A DNA stretch of 27,936 nucleotides from a virus. Within the stretch, counting starts at the first letter, position 1. Every line of letters begins with the position of its first letter. Below, one piece after another: positions 11,365-26,220 of this stretch. Made by a program: the position numbers and the translations under genes. The notes beneath the pieces were generated by a model. That model was not told the DNA's origin. It did not search any database and was given only the letters and a program-made list of their open reading frames with translations. Location of the stretch: the IMG/VR virus record IMGVR_UViG_3300031565_000281, positions 1 to 27,936 of that record; one strand, 5' to 3'.

Positions 11365-12534
11365 TCAGTCAGCCCTTACGTTGTTGGTGACCATCGTGTT
11401 CACGTCCAACGACACGTTGCCGGGCGGGACGCTCGTCAAGCCGCCGGCCCGTGGCGGCGACCCCGCCTGCGACGTGACCTGTAGTGTAGACGTACCCGTC
11501 GTCGCACCAGTTTCCGGATGCTGATGATTCTCCAGGACGAACAGCATGTCTTGCAGCAGGATCATCACCTGCTCGTGTGCCAGCCTGTACTTTAGGGCCG
11601 CTGCTGTTCCGAGAAGAATCGGCACTCCGGTCGTCACGAGAGCTACCGCGGCACCTGTGATCGTCACGCCAAGGGCTGTAAGCGCAAACAGCCCAGCGAT
11701 GGTGTAAGTGAGGGCCCCAGCAAAGATGTAGGTGGCTGCCCCGGCGAAGTTGCTGGTCAACGTACCGCCCCCAACCATCGAGGTCGGGGCTGCCCCAGTG
11801 CTTGTGAGCGATATGCCAAGGGCAGTGACGGCGGCAGCACCCGCAGCCACGGCTACGATCCCGCCGCCCGCTGTGGCGTTGATATTCCCGGGTGTGGTCA
11901 CGTTGATGTTCCCGGGTGGCGCGTCAAGCATCTCGATGGCTTGCGTAGGCGTCTTGATGCGCACGAACTCAGCGCCCGGCGCTAACTCGTCCAACACCAC
12001 CTCGCGCTGACCAGGCGTGCTGATCTCCGCGCGCTTGTTCGTGTCGTCGAGCAACGCCTGAAAGCCATCTGCCGTCCGAACACGAATGTAGGACTGCCCC
12101 GACTTCCACCGCATCTCGAACAGGTGCCCATTGGTCGTCCTGATAAGCCGCGTCTGCGGATCGGGGGCGTACGACGACACGAACTCGTCAGGCACATCGC
12201 CAGATCCGTAGAACCCACCGAACCACACCGGGTACTCAGGGTCGCCGCCCCAGAACATGACCCAGACTCCCGCGCCAAGTGGAGGCGCCCAGGGTGCGCC
12301 GCTCTTACTCCCGGTGGTTGAGAACGCCGGGCGCGCCCAAGGCAGGTCATCATCCTCGATCTTCTCCGACTCCACGGCAGCGCCGTAGAGTTGATCGACG
12401 CGCACCCTGACCTTGCCCTCCTTGTCGGGATCCTCTGCGCTAACGACAGTCCCTGGGTAACACCCAGGAACCGGGCCGTCCCAGCTACGGGTTGCACGCG
12501 GCTCTTGCAGGGCTAGTGGGAGTGACGGCGTCAC
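11365..12534 (-). CDS. Baseplate spike protein, gpV/gp5 OB-fold type
   Basis: A 389-aa protein starting at GTG, overlapping the hub stop (GTGA), with GAGGAG upstream. Residues ~24-115 are the N-terminal OB fold: YPGTVVSAEDPDKEGKVRVRV, an acidic loop, DLPWARPA, then GAGVWVMFWGGDPEYPVWFGGFYG. Residues ~205-315 are a low-complexity Gly/Ala/Thr repeat (PGNINVTTPGNINATAGG) consistent with a triple-stranded beta-helix needle. Residues 337-339 are H-Q-H followed by Pro; an HxH motif binds iron at the tip of the P2 gpV and phi92 gp138 spikes. Here ~50 residues follow it, so it is not at the extreme end. No T4-type lysozyme domain is visible. It caps the hub and pierces the membrane. Confidence 0.85.
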   Translation of the reverse strand: MTPSLPLALQEPRATRSWDGPVPGCYPGTVVSAEDPDKEGKVRVRVDQLYGAAVESEKIEDDDLPWARPAFSTTGSKSGAPWAPPLGAGVWVMFWGGDPEYPVWFGGFYGSGDVPDEFVSSYAPDPQTRLIRTTNGHLFEMRWKSGQSYIRVRTADGFQALLDDTNKRAEISTPGQREVVLDELAPGAEFVRIKTPTQAIEMLDAPPGNINVTTPGNINATAGGGIVAVAAGAAAVTALGISLTSTGAAPTSMVGGGTLTSNFAGAATYIFAGALTYTIAGLFALTALGVTITGAAVALVTTGVPILLGTAAALKYRLAHEQVMILLQDMLFVLENHQHPETGATTGTSTLQVTSQAGSPPRAGGLTSVPPGNVSLDVNTMVTNNVRAD

Positions 12535-13736
12535 ACCAACTCCTCGACCTTGATGACAGCCGTCTGCGTGGCCGCTGAATCGCCGCGGAACCTGTCGCGC
12601 GTCCGCACGTTGTCGGCCACCGCCCCGGTCGGTTGGTCCTCGCCTTCCCAGGCTTCACGCCTGAATCCAACAGCGGTCGTGCTCAACGTCCCGGCCTTGT
12701 AGTGATGCACGACCTCAAGGAGCAAGTACCTCCCCTGGAACACGGACTGCCGATTAGGGTCATCCGCAGCGACAATCTCGATGACCGCGTTGGGGCGCAG
12801 CACCACGTCGGGGCGCGTGTTGACGCGCAGCGAGAAATACCGCGGGCCCAGGTCTCCCCACAAGCTCCTGGTGGTTTCCTCTACAACAGCCTGGTCATCC
12901 TCGATGACTGGCATGGACCGAAGGCCGTCAGCTTGCCGACGCGGCACCCGCTTAGACAGCGCTTGATGCGCGCTGGCCGCCGCCGCGTCAACGTCGAACA
13001 CGATGCCGGCCTTCGCGCCATAATCGAATCCAACGCCACGCAACGTGGCTCCGCCAAGCCGGTCGACCTGCCTCCCGTGGTACTGAACAACGTAGTCGTT
13101 CAGGCGGTTCTCGATGGACAGCGTGTCATGCCTCCGTACAGACGACGCCTGAGACTGGACAGACACGAGTCGGAGCGTGCCCTCATCCATGTAGAGGAAC
13201 AAGTCGCCGCGACCATCTTGCGTGGCGGCTGCGCGGGTTAGACGGCGAAGAAAACTCCAGTCGTCCTCCCGAAGCTGTCGGCGCGTGCGCGTCCCTTTGG
13301 TTATCACGGCGTCGACGGTCAAGCCGTGGTCTCCAGCTACACGCGCCACAACGTCCGACACTTTGGCGTCTTTGAACGCGCGCAGCCTGGATCGCTGCAT
13401 CAGGTCAAGGCGTTTGTCGGCGCCGTGTACTTCGCATCGCATCGTGGGCTCAGCCGAAAACTTGGCTTTCGACCAGTCCGTGTAGGCGCGGCGCCATTCT
13501 GTCGTGCTCTCAACGCCTTGCTCTTGTTGCTTGAGTCGAAACCGAACCTCGGGCTTCTCTCGCCCAAGCATCAGGTTCCACCACTCGGTCCAGTAGTTCG
13601 TCTTGAGCTTGAGCGCCCAAGTGAAGCCACCACGCAGCAAGCTGTCAGTCCAGACGAACTCATCTAGCAGCGGGGTGATCTCGCGCGCCTCGTTGTTGAT
13701 GCGGATCTCAATTCCGACCGTTCCGGTGAGCGACAT
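12531..13736 (-). CDS. Baseplate hub protein (gp27 / gpD-like)
   Basis: A 401-aa protein whose ATG follows the LysM gene stop directly (TAGATG). The first ~110 residues form a tube-like domain (GTVGIEIRINNEAREITPLL, then a Trp-rich segment NYWTEWWNLML). Residues 159-190 (DWSFLRRLTRAAATQDGRGDLFLYMDEGTLRL) carry the D-W-x-F-L-x-R-L signature of the gp27/gpD/VgrG hub fold. It forms the trimeric hub linking the tail tube to the spike encoded immediately downstream. Confidence 0.82.
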   Translation of the reverse strand: MSLTGTVGIEIRINNEAREITPLLDEFVWTDSLLRGGFTWALKLKTNYWTEWWNLMLGREKPEVRFRLKQQEQGVESTTEWRRAYTDWSKAKFSAEPTMRCEVHGADKRLDLMQRSRLRAFKDAKVSDVVARVAGDHGLTVDAVITKGTRTRRQLREDDWSFLRRLTRAAATQDGRGDLFLYMDEGTLRLVSVQSQASSVRRHDTLSIENRLNDYVVQYHGRQVDRLGGATLRGVGFDYGAKAGIVFDVDAAAASAHQALSKRVPRRQADGLRSMPVIEDDQAVVEETTRSLWGDLGPRYFSLRVNTRPDVVLRPNAVIEIVAADDPNRQSVFQGRYLLLEVVHHYKAGTLSTTAVGFRREAWEGEDQPTGAVADNVRTRDRFRGDSAATQTAVIKVEELV

Positions 13737-14078
13737 CTACACAGCCCTCACACGCCCGCCAGCGGCCTGGAGCGCCGACCTGACGCCGTCGGGGTTGGGG
13801 ATGATGAGCGTCATACCGGCGATGACCTGTTCGTGCGGAAGGTCGATCTTGTTGGCGTGCGCGATGATCCTCCACAAGCGGCGGTCGCCGTAGAACTCGT
13901 CGGCTATCAGGTCGAGATGACCCTGCATCCCTTGCGGGACGGTGTACTCCTCCTCACTGCCGTCAAGCTCAGGGGTGACGGGGTTCCACAGCCCGAAGAA
14001 GGTTCGTCCAGCCTTGATGAAGATGGATGTCTGCTTGTAGGGATTGGTGAACTCAAGCTCGACCTCAGACGACGCCAT
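13737..14078 (-). CDS. LysM-domain baseplate protein (gpX / gp53-like)
   Basis: A 113-aa protein with ATG 2 nt after the TAG of the preceding frame. Residues ~45-95 are a LysM domain: YTVPQGMQGHLDLIADEFYGDRRLWRIIAHANKI, then GMTLIIPNP. The N-terminal ~40 residues are beta-rich (FTNPYKQTSIFIKAGRTFFGLWNP). In contractile systems short LysM proteins between tape measure and hub bind the tube-hub junction inside the baseplate (P2 gpX, T4 gp53 C-terminus), not peptidoglycan. The neighbours, a tube-initiator-like gene before it and the hub after it, support that role. Confidence 0.8.
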   Translation of the reverse strand: MASSEVELEFTNPYKQTSIFIKAGRTFFGLWNPVTPELDGSEEEYTVPQGMQGHLDLIADEFYGDRRLWRIIAHANKIDLPHEQVIAGMTLIIPNPDGVRSALQAAGGRVRAV

Positions 14079-14080
14079 GG

Positions 14081-14557
14081 CTAAAGCACCCGCGGCAAGC
14101 CGGGCGGCAGGCCCTTGGCAGCATTTGCCATATCTACGAGCGCTTGCGCCTTGATGGCTGCGTCAGTCTCCACTTGGGTACGGTTGAGCGCAGAAAGCGC
14201 CACACGGTTACGCGTCGTCTCCAGCGCCCTCTCTGCGTTCGCGTTGAGCGCGACCGTGCCAGACACATTCACGGGCGACTGCTCGGACCCGCCAGCGCTA
14301 TTGCGAATCGACTGCCACGTAGGGTAGTCAGCATCAAGCCGCTGAATGCTCATCGTGACCGCGCAGGCATACGGCCGCATCGTTTCAGGATGATAGGGCG
14401 GCTTCCACCTCAGAGAGATGTTGGCAAGGTAGCCGCGAATGATGAGGAAACTGCCGAATACGACCAGGAAGATCGGCGGGTCGTTTCGCACCTGCGAGCG
14501 GAGCGCCTTTTGAGTCGTGGCGCTAGGTGCGAACCCAGTCGTGGTTGCGCGCTGAAT
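14081..14557 (-). CDS. Tube-initiator-like protein, C-terminal half after in-frame TAG
   Basis: This is the in-frame continuation of the gene above a TAG at 14558-14560. The only standard start is a GTG at 14491 with no Shine-Dalgarno, giving 136 aa. The frame itself is open from the codon after the TAG. Residues RNDPPIFLVVFGSFLIIRGY followed by LANISLRW match the second half of the CIS tube/tube-initiator domain, where a 'PP...f.wGs..f.G.l..l' strand pair follows a DV...L helix. The remainder (ALETTRNRVALSALNRTQVET...) is helical. It ends in TAG two nt before the LysM gene. Most likely it is not a separate gene. Confidence 0.6.
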   Translation of the reverse strand: MQRATTTGFAPSATTQKALRSQVRNDPPIFLVVFGSFLIIRGYLANISLRWKPPYHPETMRPYACAVTMSIQRLDADYPTWQSIRNSAGGSEQSPVNVSGTVALNANAERALETTRNRVALSALNRTQVETDAAIKAQALVDMANAAKGLPPGLPRVL

Positions 14558-14560
14558 CTA
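14558..14560 (-). other. In-frame amber (TAG) codon inside tube-initiator gene
   Basis: The codons read GCG GAT CGG TAG ATT CAG CGC and the same frame stays open for 158 further codons to another TAG at 14081-14083. A single-base change from CAG, TGG, AAG, GAG, TAC or TAT would create it. About nine other genes in the window end in TAG at sensible positions, so TAG is a working stop here. Confidence 0.8.
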
Positions 14561-14977
14561 CCGATCCGCAAAAGCTCCCGCCGTCCTACGCAACGGGAAC
14601 CCAAGCGCCTCAAACCAGCGGATGCGCCGCTCCATGTCGACCAGGATGCCTTCAACGTCCGACGCCTTAATGTTCCTGGGATCGGCTCCAGCCGGAAGCA
14701 CGCCATCGGCCTGAAAGTTGAGGGTGAGGTTCATCGCGGACCAGTTGCCCCCGCGGTAGGCAGCGTACCCCGGTTGGGGCATTCGCTCCTTGGCGTACTC
14801 CTGGTACCCCGTGACGCCGTATGCCTCCTCGATCTCTTGCTCAAAGGACTGGAACGCCATCCGCCCGTCTACGCCAGTCGGCTGATCCTCCAACACGATG
14901 GCGCAGTTGGCCGTGTTGCGTGGGCCCATGCGGGCGCCTGGTGCGATGGCACGGCTTGTCTGACCGGCAACAGGCAT
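14558..14977 (-). CDS. Tube-initiator-like protein (CIS tube domain), N-terminal half
   Basis: A 139-aa frame whose ATG overlaps the tape measure stop (TGATG). It includes AFQSFEQEIEEAYGVTGYQEY, AYRGGNWSAMNLTLNFQADG and ASDVEGILVDMERRIRWFEALGFPLRR. The 'GG....l.l.l.F' strand followed by a D-V-x-x helix is the first half of the CIS tube domain (Afp7/PVC7-type, gp54-like tube initiator). The family usually continues with a second strand set, which here lies in the same frame after a TAG. Joined, the gene would be 298 sense codons plus the TAG. Position between tape measure and LysM protein suits a tube initiator. Confidence 0.6.
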   Translation of the reverse strand: MPVAGQTSRAIAPGARMGPRNTANCAIVLEDQPTGVDGRMAFQSFEQEIEEAYGVTGYQEYAKERMPQPGYAAYRGGNWSAMNLTLNFQADGVLPAGADPRNIKASDVEGILVDMERRIRWFEALGFPLRRTAGAFADR

Positions 14978-17331
14978 CAGATACCACCCATCCCTACCGC
15001 GCCGAGAAGGTCATCGGAGTACGATTGCTGCGCTTGCGATGCCGTCGAGCCGCCGTCACTGCCATCAACGTGCAGCGTGCCTCCGAGCCGCCGGTCGATT
15101 GACTCCAAAACTCTGAGCACTTGATCCAGGCCAGGGAGCGCCAAGCCATCCAACGCAGGCGCCAACGCAGCGCGGACGGCCTGCGGACGTAGCGGCAAAA
15201 TCAACTCCGGCCCAGCCTCGCCGACCACCGCCTGCACCCCACCGACGCCGACAGCTTGTTGGGTGGTGATGCCTCCGGCAGCTAGCGCCAGCTTAGGGAG
15301 AAAATCTATCCCTACAACGCTGCCAAGCCGCCCCGGCGGACCAGGAATGTCCCAGTTGAGAATGTCGTTGATCGTCTCGATGACGTAGTTGTTGATGAGG
15401 TTCTTGATCGTCGCAATCGGCGCCATAAGCGCCGAAATAGCCGCGCCTATGATGCCGCGGAACACGCCGCCTACCTCAGACAGACCAATCGCATCGAAGA
15501 TCGTCGCGATCACGCCGTCAAACCATGACAACACCCGCACGCCAATGCTCTGCACCCACATCCAGGTATCCTTCCAAAGCCTTGGGATGTCGTGCGAAAG
15601 GAACTTGACAATGCGCTCGAACACGGCGTCTACCATGCCCCCGATGGCCTTCGGGATGAAGGTGACCATCGGGATGATGATGTCCTCCTTGATGCCGCTA
15701 CCCGACCAGAAGTGCATCACGGCGTCATAAGCGGCTATGAGCCAACCGAACAACGCGTCGGACCAGCCGCCTACGGTCTCAAACAGGTCGTTGAGTCCTA
15801 TCTTGAACGCCTGAATGAACGTGTCAAACCCGCCAAGCTCCACCATCGCCCCGCTCAAGAACTCGGATAAAGCGTTAGCCAAATCCCCAATCCACCCGGC
15901 CAGCGTCGCGATGGGGGCGGTGAGCGCCTTCACCAATTCCAATATACCGATGAGCCCTGCGGCGATGAACGGCGCGGCGACTTGCAGCAGCGAGGCTACC
16001 AACGTGAGCAACGGCGGGATGAGCGGCTGCAAAGCGCCGAGCAGCCCGATGAACGTCTCGACAAGCAGCGGCCCGACCTGATCCCAAATTTTGCCGATCT
16101 CGCCGAGCACGACGAGCAGCGTGTCAGCGAGAAGCATCACGACAGTCGTAGCAATGGGAAGGAGCGCCGCAAACAGTTTGAGGAAAACCGGCAACACCTT
16201 GGCGACGATGCCAGAGAGCGCTTGCGCGAGGCTCATCACGAACGGCATAAGCTGCTGGACGACGCTAGCGAACATGCCTGCTAGCTCAGTGACTATCCCT
16301 ACTGCCGGGCCAGTGTCCAACATCGTCGAGAGCATCTGCCCGAACTGCGTGACGACGATTTCCAACACACCTACAAGCGGGACGATGAGCTTCGCGATTT
16401 TGGGGCCAAGGTCTTGCGCGATCATCTCCATGACCATCTGGAGCGGGCCAAGCGCGTTACTCAGGTGATCCATGATGCCCGTGACAAGCGGTTGAAAGAC
16501 GTTGGACAGGATGTTGATGATCGGACTCAAGAGCTTCATCAAACCTGAGAACGGACCTGCTACACCACCACCTGCCGCACCACCCGCTTTGGCCGCCTTC
16601 CCCACATCTTCCTGAGCGTCTTTCACTTCCAGAAGGCCCTGCACCATCTCGCCGATGCGTAGTGCTGATCCGGCTGCCTCTCGTCCCGCGGCAAACAGAC
16701 TCTTACCCACGTCGACAACACCAGCCTTCACGCTAGGCAGCATCTTAGCCAACGTGCCAAACCCAGACCAAACAGCATCCGCCACTACGCCAGCAGCGGT
16801 GCCGATCTGAGAGAACGAAAACTCGGTGTCGACCAGGAACGTCTTGACCGCACCCGCCGCACCCATGAGAGCGTTGGGGATGGTGTTGGTGAACGCGTCG
16901 TAGGTCTTGATCCCCATCTCCGCGATGGCTGCGTTGGCTGCTGAAAGCGCGTTAGGGATGGTGTTGGTGAACGTGTTGACGACTGCGTCTTTTACCGTAG
17001 CCGCCGCTGCTGACGCGTTCTCGCTGAGCACCGAGAACCCCTCACCAACGCGGTCCATCGTGGCGGCGCCGACGCCCCACGCGGTACCTAGTACGTCGCT
17101 GAACACATGGGAGAACGAACTGCCCACGACGCCCATGGCCGTGCCGACGGTAGCTCCAATTCCGCTGGTGACCTTCTCGATGGTGGTGGCGGCGCCGTCT
17201 AGGCTATCACCGATGCCAGCACTGGCTGCGGCTACGGCCTGAGCCGCCTGCGTCACAACCTGCGACGCAAGGTCTTGGGCGGAGAACATCCACCCCACGA
17301 CCTCGAACACGCCTCCGCCGGCTCCCGGCAT
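14977..17331 (-). CDS. Tape measure protein
   Basis: A 784-aa protein, long, Ala/Gly/Val-rich and helical, placed after tube and chaperone genes and before the baseplate genes. Residues ~15-250 are helical with repeated segments (TFTNTIPNALSAA at ~120 and AFTNTIPNALMGA at ~146). Residues ~262-475 form a long hydrophobic stretch with regularly spaced Pro (LLPIATTVVMLLADTLLVVL, PLIPPLLTLVASLLQVAAPF) like the membrane-active middle of tape measures. The C-terminus is Gly-rich with AGGITTQQAVGVGGVQAVVGEAGPELILP, a common tape measure ending. At ~0.15 nm per residue the tail would be near 115-120 nm. ATG 17331 lies 4 nt from the upstream stop; ATG 17289 (GAGG upstream) is an alternative. Confidence 0.88.
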   Translation of the reverse strand: MPGAGGGVFEVVGWMFSAQDLASQVVTQAAQAVAAASAGIGDSLDGAATTIEKVTSGIGATVGTAMGVVGSSFSHVFSDVLGTAWGVGAATMDRVGEGFSVLSENASAAAATVKDAVVNTFTNTIPNALSAANAAIAEMGIKTYDAFTNTIPNALMGAAGAVKTFLVDTEFSFSQIGTAAGVVADAVWSGFGTLAKMLPSVKAGVVDVGKSLFAAGREAAGSALRIGEMVQGLLEVKDAQEDVGKAAKAGGAAGGGVAGPFSGLMKLLSPIINILSNVFQPLVTGIMDHLSNALGPLQMVMEMIAQDLGPKIAKLIVPLVGVLEIVVTQFGQMLSTMLDTGPAVGIVTELAGMFASVVQQLMPFVMSLAQALSGIVAKVLPVFLKLFAALLPIATTVVMLLADTLLVVLGEIGKIWDQVGPLLVETFIGLLGALQPLIPPLLTLVASLLQVAAPFIAAGLIGILELVKALTAPIATLAGWIGDLANALSEFLSGAMVELGGFDTFIQAFKIGLNDLFETVGGWSDALFGWLIAAYDAVMHFWSGSGIKEDIIIPMVTFIPKAIGGMVDAVFERIVKFLSHDIPRLWKDTWMWVQSIGVRVLSWFDGVIATIFDAIGLSEVGGVFRGIIGAAISALMAPIATIKNLINNYVIETINDILNWDIPGPPGRLGSVVGIDFLPKLALAAGGITTQQAVGVGGVQAVVGEAGPELILPLRPQAVRAALAPALDGLALPGLDQVLRVLESIDRRLGGTLHVDGSDGGSTASQAQQSYSDDLLGAVGMGGI

Positions 17332-17334
17332 CCA

Positions 17335-17607
17335 TTACCCCAATCCAAGTAGTCGACCTACCACCAACCCGATAATCTCCTTCCAGCCACCCCGCTTCGC
17401 GCGGTCCATCGTCTGCTGCCGTTCCACCTGCCACCGCGCCAGATGATCCAGCCGCTGCCACCGCGCCATCACTCGCCAGTCCTGGTAGGACACTCCGCAC
17501 CTGGACATGAGGATGTACCGCTCTTGCCGGATGTCCTCCAGGTCAGGAACGGCCGCGACGAAAGAGGGATCCGTCCAGCGGGAGATCCGTACGGAACGAA
17601 TGCCCAC
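17335..17607 (-). CDS. Short +1-frame ORF before tape measure, probable frameshift extension
   Basis: This frame overlaps the end of the gp26-like gene by 65 nt in the +1 frame and ends in TAA, 4 nt before the tape measure ATG. From the GTG at 17607 it is 90 aa; from the ATG at 17508 it is 57 aa. Neither start has a Shine-Dalgarno. The likely real part begins near VPDLEDIRQERYILMSRCGVSYQDW, a helical stretch that in gp26-type proteins normally continues directly after the 'DLPLD.SFF' zinc-knuckle end. That makes it a C-terminal extension made by ribosomal shifting, or a gene fragment, more likely than an independent gene. The tail ends WKEIIGLVVGRLLGLG. Confidence 0.5.
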   Translation of the reverse strand: MGIRSVRISRWTDPSFVAAVPDLEDIRQERYILMSRCGVSYQDWRVMARWQRLDHLARWQVERQQTMDRAKRGGWKEIIGLVVGRLLGLG

Positions 17608-18619
17608 AGTGGGGGCACTTGAAACGCGGACGCATGTTGTAGCTGAACGACCTCCTTTCCATTTGCCGCCGCAGATCCGACAGCAGCGGGCTGGGCGTCT
17701 CCTTGACCCAGGCGTAAGCCTGGAGGAGCCCCGTCTTGTTGCCGTTGACCGAAGTGATCTGTAGTGCGAGGAGGATGTTGTTCAGCTTCGACCCGGCCTG
17801 AACGGCAGCGCTGCCGGTTCGCTGGGCGAACTCCTCGGCAACCACCATGTCCTTCATCCGCAAGTGCCGCCACGAAACGCGGTCGCCCGTTCCTGGCAGG
17901 GCAGGGCCGTTCCACTCCAACGGCTCAAGTGGGTCGGTCTGAAACGGCTCCCGCGCGCCGTCCTGCGAGACAACGGCCGCTACGGTGCCCATCGTCCCGC
18001 CGCCCATGATCTCCTCCAAGATCGCCAGGTCAGGGTCGGACGGCTCAGGCACGGGCCAGGTCGACTCCTCGCCTGGTCCAGCGAACCGAAGCTCTACACA
18101 CTCCATCTCGCCGAGGGTGCGGGTCTGGTCGCTCGGCTTTCCGCAGCCACGAGGTCGTGGGCAGGACGGTGCGAGGAACACGCGATCATCCCCAGCGCTG
18201 TAGGCCAGCAGGTGAAGGAGGACTGCCGGCCAGTCGAGGACGAGGATGTCCGGCAGGCCGATGCCGTTGAAGTCCACGACCTGCTCGGCTACATGGCGGA
18301 GCGCGGCCGACGCCGCAGCGCCTTCGCCCATCCCGGCGAGAACTTCCTCTTGCTCGCCGCGGGTCGGTGCGATGAAGATCGACCCGCCATGCCCTTCCGG
18401 GTACCACAAGCCTCCACTCGGGAGCCTGTAGTGACGGCTGAGCGGATCTCGCCCACCCCCGACATGCCCAGCGGCTGATCGCATCCGCGCGAGCGACTCC
18501 TCGTGTGCGCGAGCCATGTCTTGGGTCTGCGTTTGGAGAAGCGTCGACGGTTGCAGTTGCTCGACGGTCACTGGTTTGGGAACGCCTACTTCTGCTGAGG
18601 GACGGGGCTGGTTCGGCAC
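17543..18619 (-). CDS. T4 gp26-like baseplate/tail assembly protein with Cys knuckles
   Basis: A 358-aa protein from the GTG at 18619, chosen because AAGGAG is 7 nt upstream; the GTG at 18625 is only 1 nt from it. Residues ~67-90 (RLPSGGLWYPEGHGGSIFIAP) and the helical DILVLDWPAVLLHLLAYSAGDDRVF leading to SCPRPRGCGK match the T4 baseplate gp26 family layout (LPSGG..YP, then 'D...ll..lR...G', then a Cys knuckle). A second knuckle FKCPHCGHSF lies near the C-terminus, followed by RTDLPLDGSLF. It sits between tube and tape measure, the usual place of tail assembly chaperones. Its last codons overlap the +1 frame at 17335-17607. Confidence 0.6.
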   Translation of the reverse strand: MPNQPRPSAEVGVPKPVTVEQLQPSTLLQTQTQDMARAHEESLARMRSAAGHVGGGRDPLSRHYRLPSGGLWYPEGHGGSIFIAPTRGEQEEVLAGMGEGAAASAALRHVAEQVVDFNGIGLPDILVLDWPAVLLHLLAYSAGDDRVFLAPSCPRPRGCGKPSDQTRTLGEMECVELRFAGPGEESTWPVPEPSDPDLAILEEIMGGGTMGTVAAVVSQDGAREPFQTDPLEPLEWNGPALPGTGDRVSWRHLRMKDMVVAEEFAQRTGSAAVQAGSKLNNILLALQITSVNGNKTGLLQAYAWVKETPSPLLSDLRRQMERRSFSYNMRPRFKCPHCGHSFRTDLPLDGSLFRRGRS

Positions 18620-18659
18620 AGCCACGCTCCTTCCTACCTAGATGGTGTGGGGTTGAGGT

Positions 18660-19217
18660 TTACGGGTTGGACGGCGCCAGGAGGGTGGGATCCCAGATGA
18701 CGCAGTCGCAGGAGAACTCGATTGCCATCACCATGTGCTCGCCCTGACCGAAGTTGACCTGCACCTCAGGAGCCTTGGTAGGCCAGATCCCGATGAGGGT
18801 GGCGGACCGCTCCTGGGCTCCAAGGGAGTCGAACAGGACAAGATGCCCCGTTGTCTTGAGGAGGCCGGGCGGAAGCATGGTCCCCGAGACCTCGTCGTAG
18901 ACCTTCTGGAACCACTGATGGAGAACGCGCCGAGTCCCCTGCTCGGGGAAGTCCCGGAACGTCGCCTGGATGTTGCCGAGAGGTTCAGGGGCGGTCGGGT
19001 AGTGGATGCGGCCGTTGACGTACGGCAGGTTGGCCTTCCCAACCTCGCGCCCAGGAACGGTGAACTCCTGTAGCGAGAGGATGAGGATCTCCTTGCCGCC
19101 GGGGACCAACTGGTCGACCTGAAGCTCCAACATCCCCATGTTCTGCTTTTGGGGATTCCAGGTGCTCTGGGCTTGGGCCAGGTGCTTGCCGGCGTAACGG
19201 TACGGGCTAACAGGCAT
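18660..19217 (-). CDS. Tail tube protein (gp19-like)
   Basis: A 185-aa protein with AGAAGGAGAG before the ATG, immediately downstream of the sheath. It has the size and layout of gp19-type tube proteins: IHYPTAPEPLGNIQATFRDF for the inner strands, a helix VLHQWFQKVYDEVSGTM, then KTTGHLVLFDSLG, ERSATLIGIWPTKAPEVQVNF and a final strand MVMAIEFSCDCVIW. The W-(F/Y)-x-x-V-x-D/E-x-x-(T/S)-G helix and the G-I-W-P turn are family features. It stacks in hexameric rings inside the sheath. Confidence 0.85.
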   Translation of the reverse strand: MPVSPYRYAGKHLAQAQSTWNPQKQNMGMLELQVDQLVPGGKEILILSLQEFTVPGREVGKANLPYVNGRIHYPTAPEPLGNIQATFRDFPEQGTRRVLHQWFQKVYDEVSGTMLPPGLLKTTGHLVLFDSLGAQERSATLIGIWPTKAPEVQVNFGQGEHMVMAIEFSCDCVIWDPTLLAPSNP

Positions 19218-19240
19218 TGGGCTCTCCTTCTACTGCGGGC

Positions 19241-22200
19241 CTAGCCGGCGACCGCAACCTGGCTGAAATCGGTTCCGGTCGGGGTGAGGATCAGGTCGAA
19301 GTTCAGGAACTCAGCCGCGCGGGCGGGCTTGATGAACAGCTTGGCGTTGACCTGGAGCGCGTCGATGTCCGCGGCCGTGGTCGTGGTCTGATCGACGACC
19401 ACGTAGGCGTCTTGGAGGCCGCGCCGCTCGATGATCGGCTGGAGGATGTTGTTGAGTTGCGCCTCGATCTCTCGCCAGAGGATCGAATCGTTCAACTCGA
19501 ACACGAAATCCTGCGACCCGGCATCGATCTGGTTCTGGATGACGTTGACCGTCCATCGGACGTTGATCCGGTCAAGGGCGGTCGGACTACGCTGTGCCGT
19601 CCGCTGGCCTTGGAGCGTCGGGGCGCGGCCGACGCGCGCAACGATGCTGTTGAGGATTTCCGTCCGCATTCCGACCACGCCGTAGAGGAGGTTCCGATCC
19701 TCTTTGGGCGTCGAGTACTTGAGGCGGTCCGCCAAGACCTTGCCTCGCCGGTTCCCAGCGATGGGGAACCACGGAGCCGCGACCGAATCGGTGATGGCGA
19801 CCAGCGTCGCGATGTCGCCGTCAGGCGGCTCGACCACGTCCTGGTTGGTGTAGGCGTCGAAGTACTGGAGCCAGGGCGTGAACACGGCCAGGTTGCTGGA
19901 GTCGATCCCGACCAGCGGTGGGAAGGGGACGCGCGCGGACGCGACGGGGGACGGGGCGGCAGCGGCCTGGGATCCGTTGTACTGCCCGTTCACGAAGTTG
20001 CGGATCTCGAAGGCGGTCTCGCTCTCGGGGGTAGGGATGATCCCGATGCACCGTCGACCCTTCAACTCGCAAAGCTCCTGGAGCGCCGACACGACCTGCC
20101 GATGCCACTGGCCAGGGACCATGATCCAGTCCATCGGCACGACCTCGAAGTTGCGGAACAACTGGAGGCCAGTGGCTTGGTTGCCTACCCGCGTTCCGAC
20201 CACATCGGCGATGGTGAACGCTCCGCTCATCGCGAGCGACTGCGTCGCGTCGAGATCGGCCGGGAAGGTGAGCCCGTTGGGCTGGATGACCACCTCGACG
20301 TAGTCGGATCCCGTGGTGGGGTTGTTGACCTTGTCGGCGAGGGCATCGAGCCCTTCGGCTTGCCCGAACGACTCGATGACGACGCTGTTGAAGAACACCT
20401 GGAGGCGCATGGAGCCAGCCAGAGTCGGGTCGGGCGCGACCTCGGCGTAGAGCCCAGCGGTCATCACGGGTCGCTCATTGCCGATGTCGCCGGGGTACCG
20501 CGCTCGCAGGTGGGCGACCACGTCCTCGCGGACGATGAACACCGCCTCATCGAGGAGGGGGGCGCCAGTCCACTGGATGGACGTGATCCCCGTCGAGAAC
20601 ACGATGTAGTTGTCCGGGTCGCTGGCAAGCGCCACGTTCTCGGTCCATGCGGGACCGTCCGCCGGATCGATGAACGACCTCGCAATCTGCGGATCGCCCG
20701 TAGCAGCCACCGAAAGCTGGCCAGACTGGAAGGCCATGAGGCGCCCCGCCTCGACTCGGTGCGGCGCATTCGACATGGTGCCAACGAACACGGTCTCGGT
20801 GCCGTCGCCGAACCCGAAGATGTCGGCCGGCGCGTAGACGGCTGTGATCGCAGCCGCCTCCCGAAGGTTGAACGTCCGATCCCCGGTCGTCACGAGATCG
20901 AAACCGAAGGCGAACGCTCCGGTGACGTGGTCAAGCCAATCCGATCCGTTGTAGCTGTTCGCCGCCGCCGGAGCCGTGTCCTTGACGCCAGCCACGTTTG
21001 CGGTCACGTCGGCCTGGAATTGAGGGCCCGTCCCGCGCAGCGCTCGACGCGCTTGCTGGAACGGCTGGAACGTGTGCGCGATGTCCACCGTCGCGGCAGC
21101 GGCGACGGCAGCCCCCGGCGTGATGGTCCAGGTCCCGGCGACGTAGTCGATGGTCCCGGTCACCGCAACAGCGCGCGGGTTGCCCCTCGGAAGATCAAGC
21201 CACCCGCCGAGGCCATCATCATAGGCCGTGAACGGGCTACCACCCACATCCGAGATGTCGAGGCGGACCTCGCCGGGCGAGACCGGGCGGTTGGAAACGA
21301 GGATGGCGCCTCCATCGGTGTTGGCGACCGTCGCCCCTGCGGGTGCGGACGCCTGTAGGCGCTCCGTCTTGAGGGACGCGACCTGACCAGGGACAGCACC
21401 GCCGCCCATGTTGAGCAGGAGGATGTCGTACTGCGCCGCGATGATGGTCGTCCCGGCGGCGGGCATCAAGACGCCCCCGATGGGATCCCAGGTCGTGACG
21501 GTCCAGGCTCCGGTACGGTAGTTGATCGTCCCCGCCACAGGGTCGCCTTGACCACTGGGAAGGGTCCGCCAACCACCAAACCCGTCGTCGTAGATCGACG
21601 GCGGGACGGGGTCGGTGTCATGCTCGGCAGAGAGGACGACAGACCCAGGCATGACCCACCCGGCCAAGGTCTTGAGCAGGGCCTCACTTGACGCAGCGCC
21701 CGCAGCGCCCGCAGTCGCCGCCCCGGCTTGCTCATCCACCGAGACGAAGAACGCCGCCTTGTTGGCGGGGTAGAAGCCGGGCGCCAGCGGGAACTGACTC
21801 AGGTTGCCGGCATACGTCTCCTGCCCTGCGGAGGTCGATCCAACCGACTCTGACTCACCCTCGATCCAGATGGCATCGATGGTTCCAGTCAGGAAAGCCG
21901 TCGTGGCGGCTGGGGCGAGGGTCACGCCGTAGGCGCCCGTGCGGTAATCGATGAACCCGCGAACTCCGCCCGCACCCTCCAGAATGCCGAGGCCAGCACC
22001 CGTCGGTCCGTACGACTCATCGCCATCGTCGGACAGTTCGGCGTAGGTGGGGGCGACGGCCGTCTGGACGCGGATGGTGAAGGTGCCGGGAATGACCGGA
22101 GTTCCGACCGTTCCGTACAGCAGATCCTTGCCTGCCAGCGCCGCACCGATGGTGAGGAGGTTCTCGAACACGCGCTCGCCAGCCGTGGCATCGTAGGTGC

Positions 22201-22876
22201 CGTGGATCCGCTTGCCGGCCAACCCACCCGTGGACGAGTTGGCGCTGGCCGTCTGAGCGTGGACGCCGTCCTCTCCGCCGGAGAACAGCGCCGGCTCCAG
22301 AACCTGCGTGACCGTGTTGACGGTCGCAGCCGGGAAGGTGGTACCTACGCCCGGCAGAACCTCGACCTTCACGCGGCCAGACGTGTTGTTGATGATCGTC
22401 GCGATGGTGCCGTTGTCGAGTGAAAGGTACGTCGACTCGACCTGCTCCTTGTCGAAGAAAACCTGGACGTTGTAGCTCTCGGTCCCGTTGTGGGTGACCG
22501 CCACGCCAAGCAGGTCGTTGGCCCAGGACCCCTTGTTGTCGACGCCCTGCGTGGCTGCTGTGAACTTGAGGACAGCGGTCAGGCCATCCGCGGCGTAGAG
22601 CGTCACGGTGGCCGCTTTGAGGTCGACTCCCGCGATCCGCACGAACTTGGCCTGGTTGCCGCGCTTCAGGTAGCGGTTTAGCGCTCGCTGAGCGTACGTG
22701 CGGTCAGACGTGGGGCGGCCGTGGAAGCTGGTGAAGTTCCCCTCGTCGGTGAAGTCGTTGATCTCGTTCACCGGGCCCTTGGTGGCTGGTCCGATGCACC
22801 CCATGATCGCGTTGGTCGTCCTCGGCGCATAGAGCGTGAGGTCGAAGACGTTGATGTTGATTCCTGGTGCTGGCAT
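19241..22876 (-). CDS. Tail sheath protein, enlarged by inserted beta domains
   Basis: A 1211-aa protein with GGAGG 7 nt before the ATG and a TAG stop. The N-terminus (PGININVFDLTLYAPRTTNAIMGCIGPATKGP) is the usual sheath opening. Residues ~1055-1211 (YGVVGMRTEILNSIVARVGRAP, INVRWTVNVIQNQIDAG, FVFELNDSILWREIEAQLNNIL, AKLFIKPARAAEFLNFDLILTPTG) are the conserved C-terminal sheath domain that forms inter-subunit strands and the contraction mesh. Between them, residues 263-603 contain three copies of a ~70-residue domain shared with other tail proteins, and ~689-780 may hold a diverged fourth. Typical sheaths are 390-700 aa, so the extra mass should decorate the outer surface. Confidence 0.88.
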   Translation of the reverse strand: MPAPGININVFDLTLYAPRTTNAIMGCIGPATKGPVNEINDFTDEGNFTSFHGRPTSDRTYAQRALNRYLKRGNQAKFVRIAGVDLKAATVTLYAADGLTAVLKFTAATQGVDNKGSWANDLLGVAVTHNGTESYNVQVFFDKEQVESTYLSLDNGTIATIINNTSGRVKVEVLPGVGTTFPAATVNTVTQVLEPALFSGGEDGVHAQTASANSSTGGLAGKRIHGTYDATAGERVFENLLTIGAALAGKDLLYGTVGTPVIPGTFTIRVQTAVAPTYAELSDDGDESYGPTGAGLGILEGAGGVRGFIDYRTGAYGVTLAPAATTAFLTGTIDAIWIEGESESVGSTSAGQETYAGNLSQFPLAPGFYPANKAAFFVSVDEQAGAATAGAAGAASSEALLKTLAGWVMPGSVVLSAEHDTDPVPPSIYDDGFGGWRTLPSGQGDPVAGTINYRTGAWTVTTWDPIGGVLMPAAGTTIIAAQYDILLLNMGGGAVPGQVASLKTERLQASAPAGATVANTDGGAILVSNRPVSPGEVRLDISDVGGSPFTAYDDGLGGWLDLPRGNPRAVAVTGTIDYVAGTWTITPGAAVAAAATVDIAHTFQPFQQARRALRGTGPQFQADVTANVAGVKDTAPAAANSYNGSDWLDHVTGAFAFGFDLVTTGDRTFNLREAAAITAVYAPADIFGFGDGTETVFVGTMSNAPHRVEAGRLMAFQSGQLSVAATGDPQIARSFIDPADGPAWTENVALASDPDNYIVFSTGITSIQWTGAPLLDEAVFIVREDVVAHLRARYPGDIGNERPVMTAGLYAEVAPDPTLAGSMRLQVFFNSVVIESFGQAEGLDALADKVNNPTTGSDYVEVVIQPNGLTFPADLDATQSLAMSGAFTIADVVGTRVGNQATGLQLFRNFEVVPMDWIMVPGQWHRQVVSALQELCELKGRRCIGIIPTPESETAFEIRNFVNGQYNGSQAAAAPSPVASARVPFPPLVGIDSSNLAVFTPWLQYFDAYTNQDVVEPPDGDIATLVAITDSVAAPWFPIAGNRRGKVLADRLKYSTPKEDRNLLYGVVGMRTEILNSIVARVGRAPTLQGQRTAQRSPTALDRINVRWTVNVIQNQIDAGSQDFVFELNDSILWREIEAQLNNILQPIIERRGLQDAYVVVDQTTTTAADIDALQVNAKLFIKPARAAEFLNFDLILTPTGTDFSQVAVAG
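21068..22090 (-). repeat. Three shared tail beta domains inserted in the sheath
   Basis: The copies are residues 263-337 (22090-21866), 410-484 (21649-21425) and 534-603 (21277-21068). All start P-G-(T/S/E)-(F/V)-x-(I/L), have a D-D-G turn followed by G-G or G-x-(G/L), then G-(F/T)-I-(D/N)-Y-x-(T/A)-G-(A/T)-(W/Y), and close with a strand of the I-A-x-Y or D-I-A type. Confidence 0.75.
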
Positions 22877-22878
22877 CG

Positions 22879-23616
22879 TTAGTCCTCCGCGCCGAGGGTC
22901 ATCGCCTCAAGGATGGTGGGCGGGTCATCCGCCGCATTGAGAATTTCTACGTTGATCGTTCGCACGAGTCTAGCCTCCTCCGGTCGGTAAGGGATGAAGG
23001 CTTCCATTCGCCCATTCCACGTTCGGCGAACCTCTTTGGCGTTCTCACCGAACTCCAGGTCGGAGGAGTCCTCCCACCCGTCTGTGTAGAGTCGGAGCCG
23101 CGTACGACCCCAGTCCCGTGCGTGTTCCAAAACACTGAATGGTGGCTTGTACCACTTGTCAAGCGCCCAGTCGACGGGAAGTCCGACCATGTCGCCGGTC
23201 ACAAACCGTAGCTCGATCTGCGGTTCGATGCTCTGGGCGATCAAATGCCCTGCCTCCCCGCACCAGAGGTCGACCTGAACCTGCGCCTCAACCGGCCGTG
23301 GAAACCGCATCTTCTTCGCGGTGCCAGCCTTCAGGTCTTTAGCGTAGCCACGGATCGTGGCAGGGGTGTTCCAAATGGGGTGGAACTTGGGTGGCGCGAT
23401 CCACACCGACATGAACGGGCGCGGGGCGGGGGAGTCCTCCACCTGTTGGCGTGTGCGGCGTGCCGCGCTGGCGTCACCTTGTAGGCGTCGCTGCGTGATA
23501 CGAGTCAACTCCGCATGAGCACGATCAGGGCCGGCGAACACAACAGGCACGCCCTGCCCGGCCCACTTAACTTGCGCAAAGAACCCTTTGATAGCCATGA
23601 ACAGCGGGGCGTACAT
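22879..23616 (-). CDS. Putative tail terminator / neck-tail joining protein
   Basis: A 245-aa protein whose ATG overlaps the preceding stop (TGATG), ending TAA 3 nt before the sheath ATG. It opens with an aromatic helix (APLFMAIKGFFAQVKWAGQGVPVVF) and contains PRPVEAQVQVDLWCGEAGHLI followed by EPQIELRFV, a strand-helix-strand layout seen in tail terminators ('v.iq.d.w......') that cap the tube and sheath. The C-terminal region is beta-rich with several Trp and DDPPTILEAMTLGAED at the end. Position directly before the sheath supports terminator or joining protein over a capsid protein. Identification is by layout, not by a strict motif. Confidence 0.5.
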   Translation of the reverse strand: MYAPLFMAIKGFFAQVKWAGQGVPVVFAGPDRAHAELTRITQRRLQGDASAARRTRQQVEDSPAPRPFMSVWIAPPKFHPIWNTPATIRGYAKDLKAGTAKKMRFPRPVEAQVQVDLWCGEAGHLIAQSIEPQIELRFVTGDMVGLPVDWALDKWYKPPFSVLEHARDWGRTRLRLYTDGWEDSSDLEFGENAKEVRRTWNGRMEAFIPYRPEEARLVRTINVEILNAADDPPTILEAMTLGAED

Positions 23617-24230
23617 CAGGACGCCTCACGAAGCAGTTGCCGTAGGGCAGCCGCCCGGATGTTCGGTACCGCCAGCTTCAACTTGCGGAGCACAATCCGC
23701 CGCGTCGGCCGCCAGTGTGGTCGGGGTGGGATCTTCGCAGCAGCGCTACCCGCCTCCAGTATCCGTGCCAGCGCGATGAGCGGGAGTCCAGACGGTTCGT
23801 GGTTGCGGCTTTCCAAGCCAACGCCCCACGCCACACCAGCACCAGGTATCGTGGCCTTTCGCACCTCGATGCCGCGAATGTAGTCGCCCGTGGCGACGAG
23901 CGTCCTTCCATCCAGCCGCCGTGCAGCTTTCTCCACCACCCACTTGGCTGACAGCGGTGCGAGTGTGAACGACTTGCGTTCCGCGCTTGGAATGGGGCTG
24001 CGGCTAATGCGCCGTGGACGCCCTACAACGCTCCGAGCAGGAGCAGCCGGCTGCCCCGCCAGGATCTTGTCGATGATAAGCTCCCGGGTCTCCTCGGCAG
24101 CAACGCGCAACTGATTTGCCGTGGCCTCCATCACCACGCGCGGAAGCATCTGCATGATGCCCTTGATGGCCTTCAATGGCACACGTCTGCCACCTACCTG
24201 GACATGCCGCGTTGCCGTCACCCGGGCCAT
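23616..24230 (-). CDS. Putative tail-completion / HK97 gp10-like protein
   Basis: A 204-aa protein from the ATG at 24230, which has GGGGGAG upstream and overlaps the preceding gene by 13 nt. The longer frame to 24350 has no ribosome site and reads through its neighbour. The N-terminal third (GIMQMLPRVVMEATANQLRVAAEETRELIIDKILAG) is a long helix like that opening gp10-type tail completion proteins, followed by a Pro/Arg loop, a strand set (LVATGDYIRGIEVRK) and a basic C-terminus (PHWRPTRRIVLRKLK). Located between neck-like and terminator-like genes it fits a tail-completion or head-tail joining role. Confidence 0.5.
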   Translation of the reverse strand: MARVTATRHVQVGGRRVPLKAIKGIMQMLPRVVMEATANQLRVAAEETRELIIDKILAGQPAAPARSVVGRPRRISRSPIPSAERKSFTLAPLSAKWVVEKAARRLDGRTLVATGDYIRGIEVRKATIPGAGVAWGVGLESRNHEPSGLPLIALARILEAGSAAAKIPPRPHWRPTRRIVLRKLKLAVPNIRAAALRQLLREAS

Positions 24231-24886
24231 CGAAGCTCCCCCATTCCGACAGGCTGCGGCGGAACCGTTGACGGTGGAACAAGCGGAGACGGACGCCCCC
24301 AGATAGGGGATGTGGCGTCGTCCTTCAACTGACTCGCCGTCCCCTTCCACACCGAGGGAACATCTGTAGGTCCAAAGTGCTCCTGATCGGCCATCTGATG
24401 CACGATCAGATGAACCGCCTTGTACATGAACAGGTCGCCAGGTTGTGGGACGTAGATGAAGTCCCCGGGCGCAAACGGAGGATCCTCGGTACGCGCCTCC
24501 TCAAGTCGACCCTCGACATCGGACGCAATCCTGTAGACCAACCCCAAGCGAAGGCACTCGGCCCGGGACATCTCGATCTGAACTGTCCCTTCCGTGTCGA
24601 CTCGCCCCTTCTTCATCCCCTTCGCCTCACCCGCGTCATTCGCGTACAGGTGGACAGCCTGGGGATCGGCGTAGCGACGGTGGATGAGTGGTTGCTCGAA
24701 GTACGCCTCATCAGGCGCGGCCCCAGTGACACCCTCGTCTGGCGTAATCAGCCGCCAGAACCAGACGGGCGGGATGTGTCTGCGGTCACGCTTGGCCTGC
24801 ACGTCGAGCACGGTGCGCTCACGCGCAGCGTAGTTGAGCGGGAATACACCCACCCCCTCAGGACGGTAGTACCGCGGACTCGGCAT
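24218..24886 (-). CDS. Putative neck / head-closure protein
   Basis: This is 222 aa from the ATG at 24886 (GGGA about 9 nt upstream); a TTG at 24892 is an alternative. Residues ~137-185 (PFAPGDFIYVPQPGDLFMYKAVHLIVHQM...SVWKGTASQLKDD) resemble the 'GD.iy.p....lf.v..V' beta core of T4 gp14-like neck and head-closure proteins. The N-terminus is Tyr/Arg-rich (PSPRYYRPEGVGVFPLNY), and the last 30 residues are Pro/Ser-rich. It is the first minus-strand gene after the plus-strand island, so a promoter for the tail operon may lie just upstream. Confidence 0.5.
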   Translation of the reverse strand: MPSPRYYRPEGVGVFPLNYAARERTVLDVQAKRDRRHIPPVWFWRLITPDEGVTGAAPDEAYFEQPLIHRRYADPQAVHLYANDAGEAKGMKKGRVDTEGTVQIEMSRAECLRLGLVYRIASDVEGRLEEARTEDPPFAPGDFIYVPQPGDLFMYKAVHLIVHQMADQEHFGPTDVPSVWKGTASQLKDDATSPIWGRPSPLVPPSTVPPQPVGMGELRWPG

Positions 24887-24892
24887 CGACAA

Positions 24893-25047
24893 TCATCCCA
24901 GGCGCCGGCAGGGTCTATGGCCTCCCGTCTCGCCAGACCCCAGCGTAAGTGATCCGGTGATCCGGCGCAAGATGGCGCAGGCAGATGAGGTCCCTGCCTG
25001 GTGGTAAGCTAGCCCCATACGGTGAGCTAGCCCAGCAACGGGGTTAC
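24893..25047. promoter_or_regulatory. Divergent intergenic region with short repeats
   Basis: This gap separates the minus-strand tail operon from the plus-strand island and is the only sizeable non-coding stretch in the window. It holds a tandem 8-bp repeat GTGATCCG at 24949-24964 and two copies of AGCTAGCCC at 25007-25015 and 25025-25033, 18 bp apart, each containing the palindrome GCTAGC. The second pair lies just before the plus-strand ATG at 25048. No convincing sigma-70 -35/-10 pair was found on either strand. Promoter or operator function is inferred from divergence and repeats only. Confidence 0.4.
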
Positions 25048-25437
25048 ATGAACATCCTACTTGCACAGTCCGCAGAAACCGCCAAAGGATGGGTCAACAT
25101 CCTTGAGGTGCTCATCGCGGGTGGCGTACCTCTCATCTGCCTTGCGGTCGCCTGCGTCACTGGCGTAGCCTACTGGAAGCAGATGAAGCGCAACAACGAC
25201 CTTGAAACGGAATGGCGCAAGCAGGTCGCCGACGAAGCGAACGAGCGCTTGGTAGACCAGGAGCGTTTGCTGCGCGAGCAGCTAACGCGCGAGCGTGAAG
25301 GTCAAGATACAGTGACGGCTGCCGTACAGGCCATCGAAGGGTTCTCGCACACGCTACGCGAGCAGGGTGTGGAACTCAGAGAGTTGACGATCAACATCCG
25401 AGACCTTAGCTCGGCCATCAACGAGTCAAAGCAATAG
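25048..25437 (+). CDS. Single-pass membrane protein with cytoplasmic coiled coil
   Basis: A 129-aa protein from the ATG at 25048 (GGGG 4 nt upstream). A longer frame from 24985 adds 21 polar residues with a poorer context. Residues ~17-43 (VNILEVLIAGGVPLICLAVACVTGVAYW) form one transmembrane segment, followed by a positive cluster (KQMKRNN), then ~70 residues of charged heptad-like helix (DLETEWRKQVADEANERLVDQERLLREQLTRE...). The topology resembles inner-membrane spanins and some holin-associated proteins. I assign no function with confidence. It is followed 55 nt later by another plus-strand gene. Confidence 0.65.
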   Translation: MNILLAQSAETAKGWVNILEVLIAGGVPLICLAVACVTGVAYWKQMKRNNDLETEWRKQVADEANERLVDQERLLREQLTREREGQDTVTAAVQAIEGFSHTLREQGVELRELTINIRDLSSAINESKQ

Positions 25438-25492
25438 GGTGGTATTGCAGGACATCACTCATGGCCTGTGTTGAATATCTAGGGAGGGCTGT

Positions 25493-25894
25493 ATGAGTCT
25501 GCCGATCACCGACGTAGACAACCTTCGCAAGCAGTTGGAGACGGCCAGGGCTCGTAAAGGGACCGAATTGGACCGCCTCAAGGCGTGCGTCGAGGCGGCG
25601 TCAAAGGGAACCCCCGCTGACTCCAAGACATTCGCCATCCAACGCGCCGCATCGACCATCAACGGCGCTGCGTTCAACGCGCTAGACCCAGAGAAGAAGG
25701 TAGAGCTTCGGGAGGAACAGATAGAACAGGCGCGCGCCCTGCGGCAGAGCAGCATTGCCGCACTCAAACAGACGACGACGATGATGGCTAAAACCGTCCG
25801 CGAGACCTCGTTGTTCAGCCCTACCGAGCTAGATGCGAGGCTAGCAGACCTGCGAAACGCCAAGCCAACCGCAGGTCTGCCCCACCCGGCCTAA
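25493..25894 (+). CDS. Small helical protein, unknown function
   Basis: A 133-aa protein with AGGGAGG 5-6 nt before the ATG, which favours it over the 134-aa antisense frame at 25459-25863. It is almost entirely predicted helix: DVDNLRKQLETARARKGTELDRLKACVEAA, then KKVELREEQIEQARALRQSSIAALKQ, and a Pro-rich tail. There is no signal or membrane segment. The TAA overlaps the TAG of the convergent minus gene (shared CTAA). Being paired with the membrane coiled-coil gene suggests a common function, possibly lysis or virion-associated, but no family is recognised. Confidence 0.7.
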   Translation: MSLPITDVDNLRKQLETARARKGTELDRLKACVEAASKGTPADSKTFAIQRAASTINGAAFNALDPEKKVELREEQIEQARALRQSSIAALKQTTTMMAKTVRETSLFSPTELDARLADLRNAKPTAGLPHPA

Positions 25895-26220
25895 CCCTCT
25901 GGCGTTGACTCGCCAGAGAACGAAAACGCCCCCTGGTCGATCTTGTAGGCGAACTCGATCAGGTGCGGGACGAGCGCCTTCAAGATCGGGTCCACCATCC
26001 AGTCGGGGATCTTCGGGATGTCAACCTCGTCGATGACGAGGTTGAGAATCGCCACCGCGGTCTCCTTCTTCTCAGCGCCAGTCATCGCTTTGACCGCGCC
26101 TACCAACTCCATCACCTGCGGGACGATCACCAGCAGATCGGTCATCTGGAAGCCGTCATCGAACGTCTTCGCTACGACCTCTGCTCGGCTCTTGATCTCG
26201 TCGGCTGTCAACAACGCCAT
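25891..26220 (-). CDS. Small helical protein, unknown function
   Basis: A 109-aa protein with AGGAGG six nucleotides before the ATG. It opens ALLTADEIKSRAEVVAKTF and contains amphipathic helices (LLVIVPQVMELVGAVKAM, KKETAVAILNLVIDEVDI, DPILKALVPHLIEFAYKI) with conserved-looking Pro breaks (IPKIPDW). No transmembrane segment is certain. It lies directly downstream of the membrane protein gene and ends at the convergent junction. It may accompany lysis or holin functions by location, but I do not recognise the family. Confidence 0.65.
   Translation of the reverse strand: MALLTADEIKSRAEVVAKTFDDGFQMTDLLVIVPQVMELVGAVKAMTGAEKKETAVAILNLVIDEVDIPKIPDWMVDPILKALVPHLIEFAYKIDQGAFSFSGESTPEG
25897..25918. 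terminator. Hairpin at convergent gene ends, candidate bidirectional terminator
   Basis: A perfect 8-bp inverted repeat (CTCTGGCG, loop TTGACT, CGCCAGAG) starts 3 nt after the plus-strand TAA and lies within the last codons of the minus gene. There is no T-run on either side, so termination strength is uncertain. Placement exactly where two operons converge supports a transcript-end role. Confidence 0.5.

What the first reader, a model, noticed from the sequence alone, without database searches (positions are those of the whole stretch)
14081..14977. In-frame TAG splits one tube-initiator domain into two frames
The 139-codon frame ending at 14558 and the 136-codon frame ending at 14081 are in the same reading frame, and every codon between them is sense. 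The two halves together rebuild a single CIS tube/tube-initiator domain: the 'GG...l.l.l.F' and D-V helix half lies before the TAG and the 'NDPPIF...FGSF' strand half after it. TAG ends about nine other genes here at sensible places, so global TAG recoding is unlikely. Remaining options are a fresh nonsense mutation, a sequencing/assembly error, suppression in a particular host, or regulated read-through giving short and long forms. The gene should be essential for tail assembly, which makes a plain loss surprising.
Basis: partly seen in the sequence, partly recalled or inferred. Interest (0 to 1): 0.75.

Follow-up and report, generated by a model that had tools for sequence, protein, structure and literature searches.

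The report
One-off stop codon in tail gene
A single stop codon interrupts an otherwise normal phage tail-building gene in this one assembled sequence; 23 related viral contigs carry the gene uninterrupted, so this is most likely a chance mutation or a sequencing error, not a new kind of gene control.

Summary
On the minus strand, 14977..14081 reads as 139 codons, TAG (14560-14558), 158 sense codons, then TAG, all in one frame. The joined protein is a contractile-tail tube initiator: it lies between the tape measure and a LysM-like baseplate gene, and its model matches the tube initiators of extracellular injection systems and of cyanophage A-1(L), with the domain spanning the TAG. In 23 related viral contigs (20 distinct proteins) the gene is one uninterrupted frame; the two closest lineages have glutamine at the site. 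The stop falls in a variable-length insert. Nothing supports a programmed or split gene. The stop is not conserved. The only nearby internal start (GTG 14491) lacks a ribosome site and is not a start codon in the closest relatives. There is no notable RNA structure and no tRNA gene, and TAG is an ordinary terminator here. The downstream half shows the same purifying selection as the upstream half, so the interruption is very recent or not real. Near-identical contigs of this group differ at about 2.6e-4 per base, which predicts roughly 0.1 nonsense change per contig of this size. Verdict: an isolated nonsense allele or consensus error, which only reads can tell apart. Low interest.

The parts
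14561..14977 (-). upstream part of the tube-initiator gene, 139 codons from ATG, with a plausible ribosome site
14558..14560 (-). in-frame TAG, codon 140; sense codon in every relative (glutamine in the two closest lineages)
14081..14557 (-). downstream part of the same frame, 158 codons plus terminal TAG; holds the RNDPP...FGSF strands and the C-terminal helix
14489..14491 (-). first GTG after the stop, a possible but poorly supported internal start (no ribosome site; GTC in L003 and L032)
14977..17331 (-). tape measure protein, upstream neighbour; overlaps the initiator start codon by one base
13737..14078 (-). 113-aa baseplate wedge protein (phrog_7145), LysM/gp53-like, downstream neighbour
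12531..13736 (-). baseplate hub (Phage_GPD)
11365..12534 (-). spike (Phage_base_V)
18660..19217 (-). tail tube (phrog_45)
19241..22876 (-). 1211-aa tail sheath (Phage_sheath_1C); ends in TAG where relatives end in TAA, TGA or TAG

Best explanation
The gene is an ordinary single-frame tube initiator of an uncultivated contractile-tailed phage. The TAG is an isolated single-codon change in this one assembled sequence: either a recent nonsense allele (a defective genome or prophage, or a minor variant caught in the consensus) or a consensus error. It has no regulatory role. Read as written, translation would stop at residue 139, halfway through the barrel domain, and no working tube initiator would be made from this copy. 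Shown: the interruption, its absence from 23 related contigs, and equal selection on both halves. Inferred: that it is non-functional. Allele versus error cannot be decided without the reads.
For: All 23 related contigs (20 distinct proteins) have one open frame across the site. The two closest lineages (L003, L032) read glutamine at the site and others read Val, Ile or Leu. The site lies in a variable insert that is much shorter in L025 and L026, in a predicted helix at 134-146. dN/dS against L003 is about 0.11 for the upstream half and 0.10 for the downstream core, with 6 versus 6 lineage-specific changes in that core, so there is no sign of long decay or relaxed selection. No other in-frame break was seen in true gene frames. 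Near-identical contig pairs differ 8 times in 30,830 bases and 5 of 8 changes are non-synonymous, i.e. not visibly filtered by selection. With 2.8% of random coding changes being nonsense, about 0.1 such stop per contig of this size is expected (own arithmetic).
Against: No reads and no second assembly of this virus over the site were available (one search found no other copy; L002 is identical to the window but covers only 19158-26072). The gene should be essential in a productive phage (established knowledge of contractile tails), so a fixed nonsense allele would need a defective genome, a prophage or suppression.
Confidence: 0.87

Rival explanations
1. The TAG is real and is read through in the natural host, by a host or phage amber-suppressor tRNA or by leaky termination, giving full-length initiator.
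For: The downstream codons are still under purifying selection, glutamine occupies the site in the closest relatives, and a full-length product should be needed for tail assembly. The record is a fragment, so a tRNA could lie elsewhere.
Against: No tRNA in the window. A tRNA search of 12 related records found one match, a tRNA-Leu, not a suppressor. TAG ends 8 of 24 genes here. Downstream RNA is not unusually structured (z -0.89). The stop is not conserved.
Confidence: 0.07
2. Gene fission: the two halves are made as separate polypeptides that assemble into one domain, the second starting at GTG 14491.
For: The break lies in a variable insert between the two barrel halves, a tolerable place for a split, and a GTG stands just before the RNDPP strand.
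Against: That GTG has no Shine-Dalgarno-like site (-2.6 kcal/mol against a gene mean of -6.9 and a background mean of -4.0). It is GTC in L003 and L032. It lies 66 bases beyond the stop. No relative has two genes.
Confidence: 0.04
3. The phage reads TAG as an amino acid throughout its genome (code 15-like).
For: One in-frame TAG in a structural gene; crAss-like and other phages do this (PMC9523058, PMC11210395).
Against: Only one internal TAG was seen in true gene frames. TAG-ended genes (sheath, 113-aa wedge protein, gp25) end within a few residues of relatives that use TGA or TAA. The initiator itself ends in TAG just before the next start codon. No suppressor tRNA was found.
Confidence: 0.01

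Closest known systems
Tube initiators of extracellular contractile injection systems (chains 7aeb_M, 6j0n_b, 6rao_G, 9gtp_M, 7b5h_AK)
   Same: Barrel domain (model residues about 20-231) matches at Foldseek E 5e-5 to 3e-3 and VIA Z 7.6-8.5; the match runs across the TAG.
   Different: Here the LysM-like protein is a separate downstream gene; the protein has a long C-terminal helix and a helical insert where the TAG lies; sequence identity of the matches is only 10-16%.
Cyanophage A-1(L) tube initiator gp18 with LysM protein gp16 (PMC10966104; chains 8kea_P and 8kea_R)
   Same: Tube initiator of similar size (279-281 aa) with a separate LysM baseplate protein; structural match.
   Different: Low sequence identity; A-1(L) is described with a second alpha/beta domain, which is not established in our moderate-confidence model.
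TAG-recoding phages (crAss-like, code 15; PMC9523058, PMC11210395)
   Same: In-frame TAG in a structural gene where relatives have glutamine.
   Different: A single case among 24 genes; TAG is the ordinary terminator; no suppressor tRNA in the fragment.

Membership tests
Contractile-tail tube initiator | tube-type barrel fold shared with known initiators | tested here: met
   Foldseek best hits are eCIS and A-1(L) initiators; VIA Z about 8 over residues 20-231; the model is moderate (pLDDT 62.6).
Contractile-tail tube initiator | gene position between tape measure and the LysM wedge/hub genes, conserved in relatives | tested here: met
Contractile-tail tube initiator | match to a curated tube family profile (PF19266 CIS_tube) | tested here: inconclusive
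   5 of 15 family members match weakly (best E 1.9e-4) and the window protein does not; L038 scores below the curated cutoff.
Contractile-tail tube initiator | second alpha/beta domain as in eCIS and A-1(L) initiators | tested here: inconclusive
   The C-terminal region is modelled as one long helix at moderate confidence.
Phage stop-codon recoding (code 15) | in-frame TAG in several genes | tested here: not met
   Only one internal TAG in true gene frames.
Phage stop-codon recoding (code 15) | TAG avoided as terminator | tested here: not met
   8 of 24 genes end in TAG, at positions shared with relatives.
Phage stop-codon recoding (code 15) | amber-suppressor tRNA | tested here: inconclusive
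   None in the window, but the record is a fragment.
Programmed stop-codon read-through | stop conserved among relatives | tested here: not met
   0 of 23 related contigs.
Programmed stop-codon read-through | stimulatory RNA structure after the stop | tested here: not met
   z -0.89 in the window and +0.70 in L003; pseudoknots were not tested.

The most novel reading that the evidence does not exclude
The TAG is fixed in this virus and the tube initiator is made only by suppression or as two complementing fragments in its natural host, restricting tail assembly to certain hosts.
Probability: 0.06. Interest if true: 0.6.

Novelty: new member of a known kind. Interest (0 to 1): 0.15.

Why it matters
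As it stands it is a useful negative. An in-frame stop in an essential tail gene of a metagenomic contig can be explained by one unfiltered base change, and relatives are needed before read-through is proposed. If the stop were fixed and read through, it would be a single-gene, host-dependent control of phage tail assembly.

Tried and rejected
Global TAG recoding: rejected from gene ends in relatives. Separate genes with a start for the second half: no ribosome site, start not conserved. RNA signal: not significant. The all-frame stop scan was noisy because of shadow frames, and both it and one search were cut in print; only true gene frames were used. L039 is an unrelated match (it resembles a uracil-DNA glycosylase) and was dropped.

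Full report
What is in the sequence. The window is one complete public virus record, a linear fragment of 27,936 bases. On the minus strand an ATG at 14977 opens 139 codons, closed by TAG at 14560-14558. The same frame then runs 158 sense codons to a TAG at 14083-14081, just before the next gene's ATG at 14078.

What the gene is. It lies between the tape measure gene (14977-17331) and a 113-aa baseplate wedge gene (phrog_7145; LysM-like by analogy with T4 gp53 and A-1(L) gp16), followed by hub, spike and gp25. Relatives keep this order. Neither half matches PHROGs or Pfam alone, but 5 of 15 family members match the CIS_tube Pfam family weakly. The AlphaFold model of the joined frame with 15 family members reaches a mean pLDDT of 62.6. 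Foldseek's best solved structures are the tube initiators of extracellular injection systems and cyanophage A-1(L), with VIA Z about 8 over residues 20-231, i.e. across the stop. A-1(L) also pairs a tube initiator with a separate LysM baseplate protein (PMC10966104).

Relatives. Searches anchored on the sheath and on the family alignment gave 23 viral contigs with the gene, encoding 20 distinct proteins from about 65% down to 27% identity. In every one the frame is open across the site; L022 is cut by its contig end after the site. The two closest lineages, L003 and L032/L033, have glutamine at the site and others have valine, isoleucine or leucine. The region around the stop is a variable insert, much shorter in L025 and L026, modelled as a helix at 134-146.

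Is the downstream half still in use? Against L003, dN/dS is 0.185/1.75 (about 0.11) upstream and 0.202/2.09 (about 0.10) in the downstream core, and lineage-specific amino-acid changes there are 6 against 6. So the frame was selected as one protein until very recently. This fits a recent mutation, an error or efficient suppression equally; it excludes an old pseudogene.

Tests of functional explanations. Recoding: TAG ends 8 of 24 genes, and TAG-ended genes such as the sheath, the 113-aa wedge protein and gp25 stop within a few residues of relatives that use TGA or TAA. No other in-frame stop was seen in true gene frames. Suppressor tRNA: none in the window; in 12 related records the single tRNA found reads leucine. 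Split gene: the only GTG before the RNDPP strand has no ribosome site, and is GTC in L003 and L032. RNA signal: fold z-score -0.89.

How surprising is a one-off stop? Near-identical contig pairs in this group (L032/L033, L020/L021, L020/L022, L003/L004) differ at 8 positions in 30,830 aligned bases, 5 of them non-synonymous. Of random coding changes in this window 2.8% create a stop. Assigning half of the differences to each copy gives about 3.4 singletons and 0.1 nonsense codons per contig of this size (own arithmetic, rough). Across a scan of many windows such cases must occur. Essentiality is no strong objection, since a consensus error, a defective genome or a prophage is not under that constraint.

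Conclusion. The best reading is an isolated nonsense allele or consensus error in an ordinary tube initiator. Suppression in the natural host (about 7%) and functional fission (about 4%) are not excluded. The reads would decide.

Noticed in passing
17335-17607 and 17543-18625, minus strand: A 90-codon frame overlaps the end of the 360-aa gene by 65 bases in the +1 (or -2) frame; it has almost no ribosome site, and the same frame relation recurs in L003, L007, L009, L010, L011 and L014. Possible programmed frameshift or coupled overlap. The 360-aa family weakly matches T4_baseplate PF12322 in L003.
   Followed up: partly
19241-22876, minus strand: The sheath protein is unusually long (1211 aa); only the C-terminal third or so matches sheaths of isolated phages, so a large insertion is likely.
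   Followed up: no
19158-26072: L002 (IMG sample 3300031539) is 100% identical over 6,915 bases, so the same virus was assembled in a second record that does not reach the stop.
   Followed up: yes
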